Source: an uncultured Elusimicrobium sp.
Lineage (GTDB): Bacteria > Elusimicrobiota > Elusimicrobia > Elusimicrobiales > Elusimicrobiaceae
Assembly (NCBI GenBank): GCA_902797165.1
Contig: CADBRU010000011.1
Location: 1-61,467 of the forward strand
DNA length: 61,467 bases
Direction of reading: 5' to 3'
Shown here: one piece after another, positions 26,569 through 32,513 of the stretch
Layout: the number at the start of each line of letters is the position of its first letter
Position numbering within the stretch: the stretch's first letter is position 1
Position numbers and translations under genes: made by a program
The notes under the pieces: model-generated
Told to the model about the DNA's origin: nothing
The model's database searches: none
The model's input: only the letters and a program-made list of their open reading frames with translations

Positions 26569-27591
26569 TTATTTCGGAAGTCTTCCGGCCAGTATTTCCG
26601 CTATCGGGCGGGTATGTTTAATTTTGCTGAGTACGATTTTTACGGAAGCGGTAATAGGTACCGATAAGAAAGCCCCCGGTATGCCCCATACAAGCCCCCA
26701 AAAGATTAAAGAAGCAATTACGGTCACGGGATGCAAATCCATCCCTTCTCCCATCAGATGCGGTTCAATTAAACTGCCGATAATAAATTGCGCCGCAGTA
26801 AGTAGGGCAATTACCACCCAAAAATGAGGTTCAAATCCGTATTGTAAGAACAGGACAGGTGTGGGCAGTAAAACCGCGATAATAGAGCCGATACTGGGAA
26901 TAAAATTAAGTAAGAAAGTAAACAGGGCAAATAAGAACGCCAATTTGACGCGGAAGAACGCTAAAATCAGCCATACCACTACCGCCGTTACCAAAGAGGT
27001 GCTGATTTTAACCGATAAATATTTGGATACATGGGCCAAAATTTCTTGCACGGTAGCATTGGATGATTGCGCCGGAATCAATTTTTTCTCTCCGATAAAT
27101 AGGAAAATAATGAACAAAATAATTAGCGTGGTGTTGGAAATAACGGAGAAAAGTTGTTTCCCGAAATTTTGGAACCAATTCAGTAGCGGCAATTCGCGGA
27201 TGTAATTAAGAATAGACGCCTGATCTAATTCGATGCCGTGTTGGGCCAGTTTATGCACCAAATCGGCCGTTGTGCTAAGCAAATTATCGCGGTACATTTC
27301 CGCTCCTTTGAGAAATCCGCCCACGGAGTTAATCGTAAAATACACTATGCCCGAAAAACACAAGACAAAACACAGCACGGAAACCGTCAACGCCAGCCAA
27401 GCCGGGAAAGAAAGTTTGCGATGCAACATGGCGGTCATTTGAGCCAAAATGATATAGAAGAATATGGAAATAACAAGCGGAATCATTAAGGCGCGCGTAT
27501 AAATCAATACCGCCGTAATCACTCCCGCCGCGATAATGGACAGACAAATAGCACTCATTTTTTGATAATACCAACTGGTTTTATCTACCAT
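26569..27591 (-). CDS. AI-2E transporter family membrane protein
   Basis: The 340-residue protein has about eight membrane helices. The family pattern is seen in 'FLLNFIPSIGSIIAVLLPTPVLFLQ' near residue 235 and 'LIEPHLMGEGMDLHPVTVIASLIFWGLVWGIPGAFLSVPI' near 280. Family members include TqsA (autoinducer-2 export) and Na+/H+ antiporters, so the substrate is open. It is the last gene of a four-gene minus-strand operon that begins at 29778, with 1 base between it and the previous stop. Confidence 0.85.
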   Translation of the reverse strand: MVDKTSWYYQKMSAICLSIIAAGVITAVLIYTRALMIPLVISIFFYIILAQMTAMLHRKLSFPAWLALTVSVLCFVLCFSGIVYFTINSVGGFLKGAEMYRDNLLSTTADLVHKLAQHGIELDQASILNYIRELPLLNWFQNFGKQLFSVISNTTLIILFIIFLFIGEKKLIPAQSSNATVQEILAHVSKYLSVKISTSLVTAVVVWLILAFFRVKLAFLFALFTFLLNFIPSIGSIIAVLLPTPVLFLQYGFEPHFWVVIALLTAAQFIIGSLIEPHLMGEGMDLHPVTVIASLIFWGLVWGIPGAFLSVPITASVKIVLSKIKHTRPIAEILAGRLPK

Positions 27592-27592
27592 A

Positions 27593-28087
27593 TTAAACTC
27601 CTTTGGTTAGTCCCGCTCGTTTACTGAAAACGCGGGAGAGAAATAAAATTTTACCGGATAGATTATTCATATCCTCGCAACAAGAGGTTAATATCCAAAC
27701 GGGCAATTTTTCCAAAGTATATTTCTTATAAAAAAAGTTAAAACTGTCAAAAGCACTGGTCAATTCATCACTGGCACGTGAAACGGTTTTTGCACGTAAA
27801 GCAAAACTTTTTGCCTGTAGTGAAGTCGGCACTTTGTCCGTTGAGCGTGCTTGTTCGCGCAGCGCCTGCCAATTATCTAATAGCAAATCCGTTTGTTGGC
27901 GTAAATTTTGACAAAATTCGGTAAATTCCGTCTTAAAATTTTTATCGCGGATGGTAATTTTTCGGTGGTCCTGACTCAAAATTCGTTCCATCCGCCGTTT
28001 GAAATCCAGTAAAGTACGCGCTGTGCGAACAGTGGATTGACTCACTTGTTCGGCTTGTTTATTGATTTTGTCAAAAAAGTCTGGCAT
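27593..28087 (-). CDS. Hypothetical helical protein
   Basis: The 164-residue protein has no signal peptide or membrane helix. It is predicted almost wholly helical and basic, with 'ARTLLDFKRRMERIL' and 'FCQNLRQQTDLLLDNWQALREQAR'. No family is recognised. It sits between the histidine kinase (3 bases) and the AI-2E permease (1 base), which points to a regulatory or adaptor role in that operon; this rests on context only. Confidence 0.55.
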   Translation of the reverse strand: MPDFFDKINKQAEQVSQSTVRTARTLLDFKRRMERILSQDHRKITIRDKNFKTEFTEFCQNLRQQTDLLLDNWQALREQARSTDKVPTSLQAKSFALRAKTVSRASDELTSAFDSFNFFYKKYTLEKLPVWILTSCCEDMNNLSGKILFLSRVFSKRAGLTKGV

Positions 28088-28090
28088 AAA

Positions 28091-28870
28091 TTAGGCCGCA
28101 ATAGGGAAACTTAATGTAAAAATAGAGCCCAGTCCGCGGTCGGATACGACGCTAATAGTACCGCCGTGCAATTCCATAATTTTTTTGACGATGGTAAGCC
28201 CTAGTCCCCACCCGTCTACCTGACCGGTAAAATAATCGTCCACTTGGTGGAAACGTTCAAAGATTTTTTCCACATCTTGCGGGCGGATACCGGTTCCGTA
28301 ATCACGTATAGAAATAGAAATACTATCGCCGTGATTGGCACATTGCACTTTGATGATTTTTTCGGTTTTGTTATTAAATTTGATAGCATTAGCCAGTAAT
28401 TCTTGGGTCATGAAAGAAACCAGTTCTTGGTCGGCTTTTAACTCCAAGGTGGAGGAACAATCAATCTCAATAAAAGTACCGCTTTTGGAAATGGTGGAAG
28501 AGGACGGCATGGTAGCCATTTCCTCGTCATGTGTAACGGCATCATTGGCGCAAGTCTTAAGCAGTTCCTTTAAATTAATGGTTTTGTAGGCTAAATCTTT
28601 GTGTGTAAAACTGTTAATTTTATTAAAGAACAAAAGATTATCCACCAGCGCACACAATTTAGTCCCTTGTTTGTGTATTTCTTCCAAGGCTTTAGAAGTA
28701 AAAGGAGAAAAATTTTCTTTAGATGCTTGTGATAAGATAGCCTCCGAATATCCGTTAATGATAGATAGCGGTGTTTTGAGTTTATGAGAAATCAGCGAAA
28801 GCATCCGGTTGTCCGCTTCTTCTCCTTGTAAGGTTTTTAATACTTCATTTTTCTTGGCTTCTTGTTCCAT
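28091..28870 (-). CDS. Soluble sensor histidine kinase
   Basis: The 259-residue protein lacks membrane helices. The HisKA H-box 'LSLISHKLKTPLSIINGYSEAIL' has the phospho-acceptor His near residue 28. The HATPase has N-box 'ELLANAIKFNN', G1 'DYGTGI', F-box 'IFERFHQVD' and G2 'GWGLGLTIVKKI'. No sensor domain is present, so the signal probably comes from a partner. No receiver gene is adjacent; the receiver-GGDEF protein at 31584 is the nearest. It lies 8 bases after the barrel gene in the same operon. Confidence 0.9.
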   Translation of the reverse strand: MEQEAKKNEVLKTLQGEEADNRMLSLISHKLKTPLSIINGYSEAILSQASKENFSPFTSKALEEIHKQGTKLCALVDNLLFFNKINSFTHKDLAYKTINLKELLKTCANDAVTHDEEMATMPSSSTISKSGTFIEIDCSSTLELKADQELVSFMTQELLANAIKFNNKTEKIIKVQCANHGDSISISIRDYGTGIRPQDVEKIFERFHQVDDYFTGQVDGWGLGLTIVKKIMELHGGTISVVSDRGLGSIFTLSFPIAA

Positions 28871-28878
28871 ATTTTCCC

Positions 28879-29778
28879 CTAAAAAGAAACATGCATATTC
28901 ACAAAAAATAAATCGCGTTTATTTCTATCACTGCTATTGGTGCTTTGCAAATGGTTATAGGCCATATCCATATAGATATGCTCTCCGATTCTAAATGTAT
29001 TGCCGATTAAAACGGAGTGTTGCGGATCTGCCGTATAAGATTCGGCATAATGATATCCGATATACAAAGAAGATTGATTGGACGCCCATAAACGGGCCAG
29101 TCTGGTGGAGAGTGCATATTTGCCCAAAGCACGGCTCACATCATAAGATTGCACAAAGGCCAAATCTTTTTGGTCCAAAATTCCGCTAAAGCCGTCTACA
29201 TGGCTGATGCCGTCGGGATATTGATAAGCGGTAGCGGCCACTTGAAAGAGAAAAGAACTGTAAAAGTTTTGACGCACGCCTAAGGTGAAGGCGGCTTGAT
29301 CGTAGTATTGGTTTTCCCATGCGGTGTTATCCAGCACGCTTGCTTTTTGACGGGCATAGGCAAATTCCAAATAACCTTGTGTGTACACTTCGTTGACATC
29401 ATCTTTGAGCAAAGACATCGTTAAACGGGTGTGTACCCCGTACGCGGTTGCATTTTGCTCAACAGGCACATTGGTTTTGTTTTTGAAATAATAAAAAGGC
29501 GTGATATCCAGTTTGGCAATTTCCAAATCAAATTGGAAAGGGATATATAAAGAATAAACCGGATCTTTTTTGGCTCCTTGGGCAATGGGGAATTTGTCCT
29601 CTACGTATTTTACTTCCAGTCCGGCAGCCATATTCAAACCCAGCGGCACGGAGGCCCCGACCCGGGCTTGGTTGAAATCGGATGAATAAATATACGAGGC
29701 AGAAGAATCAAAAGACATCGCTGCCTGTGCGGTAAGTGCGCAAAAACCTATTAAAAGTAAAACAATTAATTTTCTCAT
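28879..29778 (-). CDS. Predicted outer-membrane beta-barrel protein
   Basis: The 299-residue protein has signal peptide MRKLIVLLLIGFCALTAQA. The mature part alternates polar and hydrophobic residues ('MSFDSSASYIYSSDFNQARVGASVPLGLNMAAGLEVKYVED', 'LYIGYHYAESYTADPQHSVLIGNTFRIGEHIYMDMAYNHL') and ends in Phe ('NMHVSF'), the classic C-terminal strand recognised by BAM. No named family is seen. It is the first gene of an operon with a histidine kinase and a permease. A TACATT -10 lies 7 nt before the ATG. Confidence 0.65.
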   Translation of the reverse strand: MRKLIVLLLIGFCALTAQAAMSFDSSASYIYSSDFNQARVGASVPLGLNMAAGLEVKYVEDKFPIAQGAKKDPVYSLYIPFQFDLEIAKLDITPFYYFKNKTNVPVEQNATAYGVHTRLTMSLLKDDVNEVYTQGYLEFAYARQKASVLDNTAWENQYYDQAAFTLGVRQNFYSSFLFQVAATAYQYPDGISHVDGFSGILDQKDLAFVQSYDVSRALGKYALSTRLARLWASNQSSLYIGYHYAESYTADPQHSVLIGNTFRIGEHIYMDMAYNHLQSTNSSDRNKRDLFFVNMHVSF

Positions 29779-29878: not shown

Positions 29879-31048
29879 ATGAAACGTGTACTAGGTCTGT
29901 TGGTATTATTTTTGACGGGAAATGTTTTTGCGGCACAAGTAGTGCGCGGTCCTTATTTGGAAGACCCTACGCAAACTACGGTGGTGGTGCGTTGGCAAAC
30001 CGACGTCTCTACGCCGGCTTGGTTGGAGTATGGTCCGGCGCCGCGTTGTAATCAAATCATGAAAATCAGCCCGGAAGGAATAGACCATAAGGCCGTTTTA
30101 TATGGCCTGGTGCCTAATCAAGATTTTTGTTACCGCTTGTACGTATATAATCAAGCGCGTAACGGCTTGCAAATTCCGGTGGAGGGTAATTTCCGCACCT
30201 TGTACACGCCGGAGCGCAAAGAAGTGCATTTTGTAGCGTCGGGCAATACCGGCGGAGCAAATCCGGGAGCAAAGGCCTTATTATCCGATCAAATGGCAGA
30301 AACAAAAGCGGATTTTTGGGTACATACCGGCAATCTGACCGCCAGCGGTCTTAATGAAGACGCCAATACGGAATTTTTTATTCCTTATGAAAACACATTA
30401 AGATCCACTCCTTTATTTGTGGCTATCGGTACCAGTGAATATGGGCCGGAGCGGGACAGCCGCGAGAGTAAATCTTTTGTCCGTACCAATTATTCGCGCT
30501 TTCACAATATGACATGGTCCAATGCTACCCCAAAATACTATTCGTTTGACACGGCCAATGCGCGCTTTATTTTCTTAGATGCCAATATCACGCAAGGGGC
30601 CGTTTGGGCGCCGGAAATCGATGAAAAATCTGCCCAATACAAATGGTTGCAAACTACCTTAGCCGGCGCGGCGGAAAAATGGAAAATTGTGGTGTTAAAT
30701 ACACCGCTTTATTCCACCGGTGAAAACGGATCTGTGCCGGAAGCGGCCGCTTTTTTGGTTCCTTTGTTTGAAAGGTATAGAGTGCATTTGGTGCTGCAAG
30801 GGGGAGAGGCAGATTATGAGCGTACTTTCCCGTTGCTGAAAGATCAAAATAGTCCCCGCGGAGTAACTTATGTCACTTTGGGGGGCGGCGGTGCCGCGCC
30901 TACGCGGCGCAAGGGTTCGGAAGCATGGACTGCGCGGTTTCTTTCCGCTTATCATTTCGCAGATATTAAAATTGTAGATCGTAAACTCAGCGTGAAAGTA
31001 TTTAATGAAAAAGGCGAAATGAAAGACCACTTCGATTTGTATTTATAA
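29879..31048 (+). CDS. Purple-acid-phosphatase-like exported protein, probably inactive
   Basis: The 389-residue protein has signal peptide MKRVLGLLVLFLTGNVFA, an N-terminal Fn3-like domain ('VVRGPYLEDPTQTTVVVRWQTD', ~20-108) and a metallophosphoesterase-like fold. Each metal-ligand motif is altered: GDxG is 'SGNTGG' (N123), GDxxY is 'GNLTA' (N152), GNHE is 'GTSE' (185-187), the HxPxYS histidine is N274, and GHxHxYER is 'GGEADYER' (308-315). The fold and surrounding residues are kept. It is likely a pseudoenzyme or binding protein. The start at 29879 is set by the signal peptide and promoter. Confidence 0.75.
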   Translation: MKRVLGLLVLFLTGNVFAAQVVRGPYLEDPTQTTVVVRWQTDVSTPAWLEYGPAPRCNQIMKISPEGIDHKAVLYGLVPNQDFCYRLYVYNQARNGLQIPVEGNFRTLYTPERKEVHFVASGNTGGANPGAKALLSDQMAETKADFWVHTGNLTASGLNEDANTEFFIPYENTLRSTPLFVAIGTSEYGPERDSRESKSFVRTNYSRFHNMTWSNATPKYYSFDTANARFIFLDANITQGAVWAPEIDEKSAQYKWLQTTLAGAAEKWKIVVLNTPLYSTGENGSVPEAAAFLVPLFERYRVHLVLQGGEADYERTFPLLKDQNSPRGVTYVTLGGGGAAPTRRKGSEAWTARFLSAYHFADIKIVDRKLSVKVFNEKGEMKDHFDLYL

Positions 31049-31087: not shown

Positions 31088-31573
31088 ATGCAAAAAGCAT
31101 TTACATTAATTGAACTGCTTGTAGTGGTATTAATTATCGGCATATTGTCTGCCATTGCCTTGCCGCAATATCAAAAAGCAGTTATCAAAACGCGCTATAA
31201 TACGCTAAAAACAATGACGCACAGTATTGTGAACGCAGAAGAAATCTATTATATGGCAAACAATGAATATACCCAAAATTTAGAAAGCTTAGATATTGAT
31301 CCGGGTGGTACGCCGAATACAGAACAACAACGTGATTTTGATTGGGGGTATTGTGCCGTACAGACGACCAGTGATATTTGGTATGCCAGATGCGAAAACA
31401 CTAAAATTAAGATGTTATATCAAGTATATTTCCAACGTTCCGCATCAGCGGCAGGTGTACGTGATTGTGTCTATTTAGGTACGGATGCTGGCGCTGTTCA
31501 AAATGCTGTCTGTAAATCGGAAACCGGAAAGACGCCGAGTTGTGGCAGCAGTGTGTGCGAAGTATATTACTAA
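31088..31573 (+). CDS. Type IV pilin-like protein (leader MQKA)
   Basis: The 161-residue prepilin has leader MQKA before FTLIE, with Ala instead of Gly at -1 and Glu5 kept. The helix is the common one, then 'ALPQYQKAVIKTRYNTLKTMTHSIVNAEEIYYMANNEY'. The C-terminal part has five or more cysteines and ends 'SSVCEVYY'. Ala at -1 is tolerated by some prepilin peptidases but slows cleavage in others. Ribosome site AAAGGAG. It abuts the 3' end of the convergent regulator gene, with no clear terminator between. Confidence 0.87.
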   Translation: MQKAFTLIELLVVVLIIGILSAIALPQYQKAVIKTRYNTLKTMTHSIVNAEEIYYMANNEYTQNLESLDIDPGGTPNTEQQRDFDWGYCAVQTTSDIWYARCENTKIKMLYQVYFQRSASAAGVRDCVYLGTDAGAVQNAVCKSETGKTPSCGSSVCEVYY

Positions 31574-31583
31574 AATTAATCTC

Positions 31584-32513
31584 TTATTTCCCGCGGCGGT
31601 CTAAGGCATAATAACTGCCGTCATGTTGTTTGGCTAAACATTTCAGTTCGGTGCCGATGGTGCTGACTTGTGCATAAGAAGTTAAAGGTCTGATAGAGTT
31701 GTGCACAATGCCAATACCGATAGAGAGTAAATTAAATTTTTCTTGTTGGCCTTTTCGGTTAGTAGACATCATAAAACCTTGGGTGCGGTCCGAGTCATTG
31801 TAGAAAGCGGGAGACAGTTGATTCATTTCATGAACAATTTGTTGGGCTATTTCTTCCGCGCTTTGTAAATTACATACAATAATAAAATCATCCCCGCCGA
31901 TGTGTCCTACAAAAGAATTAACATCTGTTTGCGCGGCGGTAATGAGCATGCGCGCCGTGGCCAGTAACACACGGTCTCCGGCGGCAAAACCGTATTTATC
32001 ATTGTAAGCCTTAAAATTATTCAAGTCACAATATAAAACCGCAAATTTGTGTTGGCGTTCGATTTCTTGTTCAATACGCGCTTGAATGGACGGGTTACCG
32101 GGTAAACGGGTAAGTGGGTTACAATCCATTTTTTGTTTATTGCGTTTTAACAATAGTTTTACACGTGCCACTACTTCTTCCGCATCGGCGGGTTTTGTTA
32201 AATAATCGTCAATATCTAAACCCAAGCCTTTGAGTTTGGTGTCTTTATCGGTAACGGCTGTGAAAATAATAATAGGTGTGTGCAAATACCCCGTATGTCG
32301 ACGGACTTCCTCCACCACTTCAAAGCCCGTTTTATAAGGCATTTCATAATCTAAAATCAGCAAATCGGGATTTTCTTTGTAAATTTTTTCCAACGCATCG
32401 CGTCCGTCTTCGGCGGTAACGACCGCAAATCCGGCATCTGTTAAAATTTCGGATACCAAATCACGAATGGCGGGATTATCGTCGGCTAATAAAATTTTGG
32501 CTTGGGTGTTCAT
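31584..32513 (-). CDS. Response regulator with GGDEF domain (PleD-like)
   Basis: The 309-residue protein has a receiver domain (phospho-acceptor Asp55 in 'LLILDYEMP', Lys107 in 'LTKP') and a GGDEF domain. Asp163 and Asn171-Asp172 of 'CDLNNFKAYND' and Asp180 of 'AGDRVL' are in place for GTP and metal binding. The signature loop reads GGDDF (206-210), with Asp for the usual Glu. An RxxD inhibitory site is not seen. It would make cyclic-di-GMP if active. The kinase at 28091 is a possible partner. Confidence 0.85.
   Translation of the reverse strand: MNTQAKILLADDNPAIRDLVSEILTDAGFAVVTAEDGRDALEKIYKENPDLLILDYEMPYKTGFEVVEEVRRHTGYLHTPIIIFTAVTDKDTKLKGLGLDIDDYLTKPADAEEVVARVKLLLKRNKQKMDCNPLTRLPGNPSIQARIEQEIERQHKFAVLYCDLNNFKAYNDKYGFAAGDRVLLATARMLITAAQTDVNSFVGHIGGDDFIIVCNLQSAEEIAQQIVHEMNQLSPAFYNDSDRTQGFMMSTNRKGQQEKFNLLSIGIGIVHNSIRPLTSYAQVSTIGTELKCLAKQHDGSYYALDRRGK

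What the first reader, a model, noticed from the sequence alone, without database searches (positions are those of the whole stretch)
29879..31048. Purple-acid-phosphatase fold with all visible metal ligands replaced
The five motifs are recognisable but GD-G is GNTGG, GD-xY is GNLTA, GNHE is GTSE, the VxxH histidine is N274 and GHxHxYER is GGEADYER. Losing every ligand while keeping the surrounding residues, fold and signal peptide implies selection for a non-catalytic role, such as binding a phosphorylated ligand or a structural role in the envelope. A single point mutation could not explain this.
Basis: partly seen in the sequence, partly recalled or inferred. Interest (0 to 1): 0.7.

Follow-up and report, generated by a model that had tools for sequence, protein, structure and literature searches.

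The report
Family-wide inactive purple-acid-phosphatase-like envelope protein
A secreted protein of gut Elusimicrobia keeps the complete two-domain shape of a purple acid phosphatase but has lost every residue that holds the catalytic metals; the same kind of loss runs through its whole bacterial family, and the gene is still under strong selection, so it is most likely a repurposed non-enzyme of the cell envelope.

Summary
ORF 29879-31048 (+, 389 aa, signal peptide) belongs to an Elusimicrobiaceae gut MAG and is a full-length plant-type purple acid phosphatase (PAP) fold: AlphaFold pLDDT 92, Z 41 to kidney-bean PAP over 352 residues. All six universal metal ligands, the GDxxY tyrosine and the catalytic His are replaced. 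It is not one decayed copy. An orthologue is in 61/61 relatives searched. None of 62 aligned family members keeps more than 3 of 6 ligands; 36 keep none. Most of the sister family (14 of 24) keeps all six, so the ancestor was probably a competent metallophosphoesterase. Losses look repeated: the family ancestor plus about three sister-family lineages (a single loss has AU p = 0.056: disfavoured, not excluded). Selection stays strong (omega 0.075 in the query's clade, 0.120 in intact relatives). Conservation has shifted towards the N-terminal domain. In 52/56 family loci the gene sits divergently beside a predicted outer-membrane beta-barrel gene, against 0/23 in the sister family. Best reading: a periplasmic or surface pseudoenzyme acting as a binding or scaffold protein, possibly with that barrel. 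No function was measured. It works like VPS29 or GAP50; a new variant of a known kind.

The parts
29879..31048 (+). Pseudo-PAP gene: signal peptide (about residues 1-18), N-terminal beta-sandwich domain (about 20-110) with conserved C57 and C84, metallophosphoesterase domain (about 112-389)
   Evidence: cysteines nearly invariant
30245..30247 (+). N123 in place of motif I Asp (GDxG)
30332..30343 (+). N152 and A155 in place of motif II Asp and Tyr (GDxxY)
30431..30436 (+). T185 and S186 in place of motif III Asn (ligand) and His (catalytic), GNHE
30698..30700 (+). N274 in place of motif IV His; Asn in 30 of 32 aligned genus members
30803..30811 (+). G309 and A311 in place of both His of motif V (GHxH); YERT just after is conserved
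28879..29778 (-). Divergent neighbour: predicted outer-membrane beta-barrel protein (299 aa, ends in Phe); adjacent to the pseudo-PAP in 52 of 56 family loci
28091..28870 (-). Histidine kinase without a recognised sensor domain (HisKA + HATPase), in the conserved divergent block
27593..28087 (-). 164-aa protein without a Pfam match, in the conserved divergent block
26569..27591 (-). AI-2E-type transporter family protein (PF01594), in the conserved divergent block

Best explanation
The gene encodes a secreted pseudoenzyme of purple-acid-phosphatase ancestry. Shown by sequence: the fold is kept, the dinuclear metal site is gone, the same state runs through the whole family Elusimicrobiaceae, and purifying selection is as strong as in relatives with an intact site. 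Inferred: the ancestor was an exported phosphoesterase (intact site in the sister family) with an additional non-catalytic role, binding through its N-terminal domain and pocket face. When phosphate release stopped mattering, ligands drifted away stepwise while the binding role was kept and strengthened. The protein now acts as a periplasmic or surface binding/scaffold protein. The most likely partner is the outer-membrane beta-barrel encoded divergently next to it, with the pocket perhaps still binding an anionic ligand without hydrolysing it.
For: Orthologue in 61/61 relatives and in all listed order members. Ligands kept: 0 of 6 in 36 family members, at most 3 in any; all six in 14 of 24 sister-family members and 20 of 22 outer rows, the other two being partial matches. 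Omega 0.075 in the query clade, 0.113 in the rest of the genus, 0.058 in genus g12, 0.120 in intact relatives. Complete PAP fold: pLDDT 92.3, pTM 0.90; Z 41 over 352 residues to 2qfp and 1xzw. Relative conservation moved to the N-terminal domain (identity 0.763 against 0.676 for the catalytic domain in the genus, 0.655 against 0.659 in intact relatives; permutation p 0.012). Replacements in the pocket are themselves conserved: N at 274 in 30/32, N at 186 in 29/32, E187 in 32/32. Losses appear repeated, as expected if catalysis is dispensable but the protein is not. Divergent barrel gene adjacent in 52/56 family loci against 0/23 in the sister family; its model is a confident all-beta barrel matching porin-like proteins.
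Against: No binding, localisation or activity data. Adjacency to the barrel gene is not a physical interaction, and four degenerate family loci (L116, L117, L135, L136) lack it, so ligand loss does not depend on it. The AlphaFold model was guided by an alignment holding intact homologues. The domain shift is modest. Many alignment rows are from one genus and not independent.
Confidence: 0.72

Rival explanations
1. Cryptic enzyme: the remodelled pocket does different, metal-free or weakly metal-dependent chemistry using the conserved replacement residues (N152, N274, E187, H149, E314, R315).
For: Motifs II to V stay strongly conserved although the ligands changed, and several replacements are conserved across the genus.
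Against: The mechanisms I know for this superfamily need the metals (own knowledge). Replacement residues differ between lineages (motif I N/A/S/D; motif V G/A/N and A/N/P/T/Q), and the motif I loop is hypervariable, which does not look like one new active site. The query itself has S186 where the genus has N.
Confidence: 0.1
2. Only the N-terminal domain matters; the catalytic domain is a decaying passenger.
For: Relative conservation shifted to the N-terminal domain in the genus.
Against: The catalytic domain has omega 0.069 in the query clade, below the 0.114 of intact relatives, and genus identity 0.676 against 0.659. Nearly all copies are open through the domain; the exceptions are one copy with an internal stop (G009/L039) and copies cut by contig ends.
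Confidence: 0.08
3. Relaxed leftover: catalysis lost because gut Elusimicrobia no longer scavenge phosphate, and the gene is simply not yet deleted.
For: In the query's family the PhoU matches listed are in proteins of about 600 aa (one in a 255-aa frame), scoring far below the stand-alone 230-aa PhoU of many class members. Degenerate sister-family genomes are smaller (p 0.003, not corrected for kinship).
Against: Omega near 0.06-0.11 and presence in every relative of these reduced genomes argue against a leftover. Within the sister family, degenerate and intact members do not sort by PhoU.
Confidence: 0.05
4. Same pseudoenzyme, but a single ancestral loss rather than several (a rival only on the history).
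For: The free quick tree groups most degenerate rows (support 80), and the AU test does not reject one degenerate clade (p 0.34; p 0.056 against the sister-family-monophyly tree).
Against: Holding the sister family together gives the better likelihood. L078 falls beside intact members of its own genus. Degenerate and intact sister-family members share the adenine-deaminase neighbourhood (18 of 23).
Confidence: 0.1

Closest known systems
Plant-type purple acid phosphatases (kidney bean 2qfp/1kbp, sweet potato 1xzw, wheat phytase 6git, lupin PPD1 3zk4)
   Same: Two-domain architecture and fold, motif spacing, YER after motif V
   Different: All seven metal ligands of the family and the catalytic His are replaced in the query
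Plasmodium GAP50 (3tgh)
   Same: PAP fold used as a membrane anchor of another machine (Z 28.7; role from PMC8949495)
   Different: Single catalytic domain in a eukaryotic parasite, and acid phosphatase activity has been reported for it (PMC8949495); no relation beyond the fold is shown
VPS29 (retromer)
   Same: Metallophosphoesterase fold turned into a metal-independent scaffold without detected phosphatase activity (PMC3101248)
   Different: Small cytoplasmic eukaryotic protein; it still coordinates metals with low affinity (PMC3101248)
Sister-family Elusimicrobiales metallophosphoesterase (e.g. L077, L084, L075)
   Same: Orthologue by sequence, signal peptide and domains (36-42% identity)
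   Different: All six universal ligands intact; usually next to an adenine deaminase gene instead of the beta-barrel gene

Membership tests
Purple acid phosphatase (as enzyme) | Seven metal ligands D, D, Y, N, H, H, H in five motifs | tested here: not met
   All replaced
Purple acid phosphatase (as enzyme) | Metal-dependent phosphatase activity, purple Fe(III)-Tyr centre | not testable with these tools
   Needs purified protein; the Tyr is absent
PAP / calcineurin-like superfamily (by descent and fold) | Two-domain PAP fold | tested here: met
   pLDDT 92.3; Z 41, rmsd 2.6-2.7, 352 aligned residues
PAP / calcineurin-like superfamily (by descent and fold) | Sequence homology to the family | tested here: met
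   Pfam Metallophos 1.5e-4 over cut-off; profile to PAPs 2.4e-24. The Pur_ac_phosph_N match is under its cut-off
Pseudoenzyme | Catalytic residues lost throughout an orthologous clade | tested here: met
   0 of 62 family rows intact
Pseudoenzyme | Maintained by purifying selection | tested here: met
   Omega 0.058-0.113
Pseudoenzyme | Demonstrated lack of activity and a non-catalytic role | not testable with these tools
   No assay possible

The most novel reading that the evidence does not exclude
A PAP-derived pseudoenzyme lineage in which catalysis was lost several times independently while the protein stayed under strong selection, because the exported PAP already had a second, structural or ligand-binding role; in Elusimicrobiaceae it became a partner of an outer-membrane barrel encoded across a shared divergent promoter region.
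Probability: 0.3. Interest if true: 0.7.

Novelty: new variant of a known kind. Interest (0 to 1): 0.5.

Why it matters
The best-known non-catalytic members of the metallophosphoesterase fold are eukaryotic (VPS29, GAP50). Two searches of the open literature found no paper pairing purple acid phosphatases or metallophosphoesterases with the word pseudoenzyme; this is not proof of absence. Here a bacterial lineage offers intact, half-lost and fully lost orthologues side by side, probably with repeated losses, so the stepwise path from enzyme to pseudoenzyme can be tested. Naming it a phosphatase from the fold alone would mislead about phosphorus metabolism in these gut bacteria.

Tried and rejected
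Single decayed copy or assembly error: rejected, since orthologues in all 61 relatives are degenerate and nearly all open. Mis-set motif register: rejected by the profile alignment to solved PAPs and by structure. Loss tied to the barrel neighbour: not supported, since four degenerate family loci and all degenerate sister-family loci lack it. Loss tied to the Pho system: the query's family shows mostly PhoU-domain proteins of about 600 aa, but in the sister family intact and degenerate genomes do not sort by PhoU. Replacement by an intact paralogue: the genome's five other metallophosphoesterase matches are distant families; four show the usual motifs and L004 lacks a GHxH match. Promoter and terminator scans gave sites near or slightly above chance and were not used. 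Papers on GAP50's structure and the E. minutum genome were not held. NCBIfam gave no family.

Full report
Observation. The reading frame 29879-31048 (+) encodes 389 residues with a signal peptide. Pfam Metallophos matches just over its cut-off and the PAP N-terminal domain under its cut-off; NCBIfam gives nothing. phmmer against solved structures hits purple acid phosphatases at 3.8e-6, and a profile of the family at 2.4e-24, with the motifs in register. GDxG, GDxxY, GNHE, the motif IV His and GHxHxYER correspond to N123, N152/A155, T185/S186, N274 and G309/A311.

Fold. AlphaFold2 with 60 homologues gives pLDDT 92.3 and pTM 0.90. Foldseek ranks plant PAPs first. VIA-align gives Z 41, rmsd 2.6-2.7, over 352 residues to kidney-bean and sweet-potato PAP, and Z 28.7 to GAP50. 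The alignment included intact homologues, so the model shows compatibility with the fold rather than an independent proof.

Who has it. The window's genome is a 1.3-Mb Elusimicrobiaceae MAG; the nearest named relatives are gut Elusimicrobia including Ca. Avelusimicrobium. The orthologue is in 61/61 relatives and all listed members of the order. Of 62 aligned family rows, 36 keep none of the six universal ligands, 17 keep one, 4 two and 5 three; only 2 keep the catalytic His. In the sister family 14 of 24 keep all six and one keeps five. Of 22 outer rows, 20 keep six and the other two are partial matches. The GDxxY Tyr is missing already in the intact sister family, so it was probably lost first. 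Genus g12 keeps D2, H4 and H5a or a subset of these. Locus L110 (a genome in one 1.64-Mb contig, which I take from memory to be E. minutum Pei191) keeps D2 and H4. Most of the query's close relatives keep only D2; the query, L007 and L047 keep none. This is a stepwise path.

Repeated loss. In the free quick tree most degenerate rows group weakly (support 80), but holding the sister family together gives a higher likelihood. In a direct comparison a single degenerate clade is worse by 30 log units with AU p 0.056, so it is disfavoured but not excluded. On the constrained tree the losses are: the Elusimicrobiaceae ancestor, L078 beside intact members of its genus, L079/L087, and L090-L092 with L096-L097. 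The adenine-deaminase neighbourhood shared by intact and degenerate sister-family genes (18 of 23) also argues for vertical descent within that family.

Selection. One-ratio codon models give omega 0.075 for the query's clade, 0.113 for the rest of the genus, 0.058 for genus g12 and 0.120 for intact relatives. By domain in the query clade: 0.050 (N-terminal) and 0.069 (catalytic), against 0.097 and 0.114 in intact relatives. Identity in the genus is 0.763 for the N-terminal and 0.676 for the catalytic domain; intact relatives show 0.655 and 0.659; permutation p for the shift 0.012. The motif I loop (120-139) became variable, with insertions of up to some 30 residues, whereas motifs II to V stay conserved with replaced ligands: N274 in 30/32, N at 186 in 29/32, E187 in 32/32. 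This is a remodelled but constrained pocket.

Neighbourhood. In 52 of 56 family loci (a few are the same genome from two collections) the gene lies divergently beside a gene for a signal-peptide protein predicted as an all-beta barrel ending in Phe, with porin-like matches. Behind it come a histidine kinase, a 164-aa protein and an AI-2E-type transporter gene. In most sister-family genomes the barrel gene has a relative elsewhere, and the adenine deaminase gene is the usual neighbour. The arrangement holds in four genera, across barrel proteins about 25-35% identical to the query's. Four degenerate family loci lack it.

Mechanism. Shown: conserved fold (predicted), lost metal site, family-wide occurrence, purifying selection. 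Inferred: no phosphatase activity, periplasmic or surface location, a binding/scaffold role through the N-terminal domain and pocket face, and partnership with the barrel. The precedent for this kind of change on this superfamily is VPS29 (PMC3101248) and, for a PAP fold as a membrane anchor, GAP50 (PMC8949495).

Verdict. A real, family-wide pseudoenzyme by sequence; new variant of a known kind; function to be determined by assay, structure and pull-down.

Noticed in passing
L110 (G108:C1, contig 1643562 bp): A single-contig Elusimicrobiaceae genome holds a half-way orthologue (2 of 6 ligands) in the same divergent arrangement; by size probably E. minutum Pei191 (from memory), which would be a cultured test organism.
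   Followed up: partly
window 31584-32513 (-) and 28091-28870 (-): A response regulator fused to a GGDEF domain lies just downstream of the pseudo-PAP, and a histidine kinase without a recognised sensor domain lies on the other side; whether they pair was not tested.
   Followed up: no
L077, L075, L083 and other sister-family loci: The sister-family orthologue sits directly downstream of a gene that reads as adenine deaminase in 18 of 23 loci, suggesting a role in nucleotide salvage for the active form; the name rests on sequence recognition, not on a family search.
   Followed up: partly
L005 (G000:C18:95500-95847, -): A very long protein (open frame 1476 aa) contains a 5'-nucleotidase-like metallophosphoesterase domain with intact motifs.
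   Followed up: no
family-wide: PhoU-domain matches in Elusimicrobiaceae are mostly in proteins of about 600 aa, while many other class members have a stand-alone PhoU, hinting at loss of the Pst/Pho system in this family.
   Followed up: partly
window 31088-31573 (+): Type IV pilin-like gene directly downstream; the same pilin family recurs elsewhere in the window near 24.2 kb and 39.1 kb.
   Followed up: no
L012-L018, L024, L040 after motif I: Insertions of up to about 30 residues (some with FGKKEE-like stretches) in the former metal-binding loop I of some genus members.
   Followed up: no
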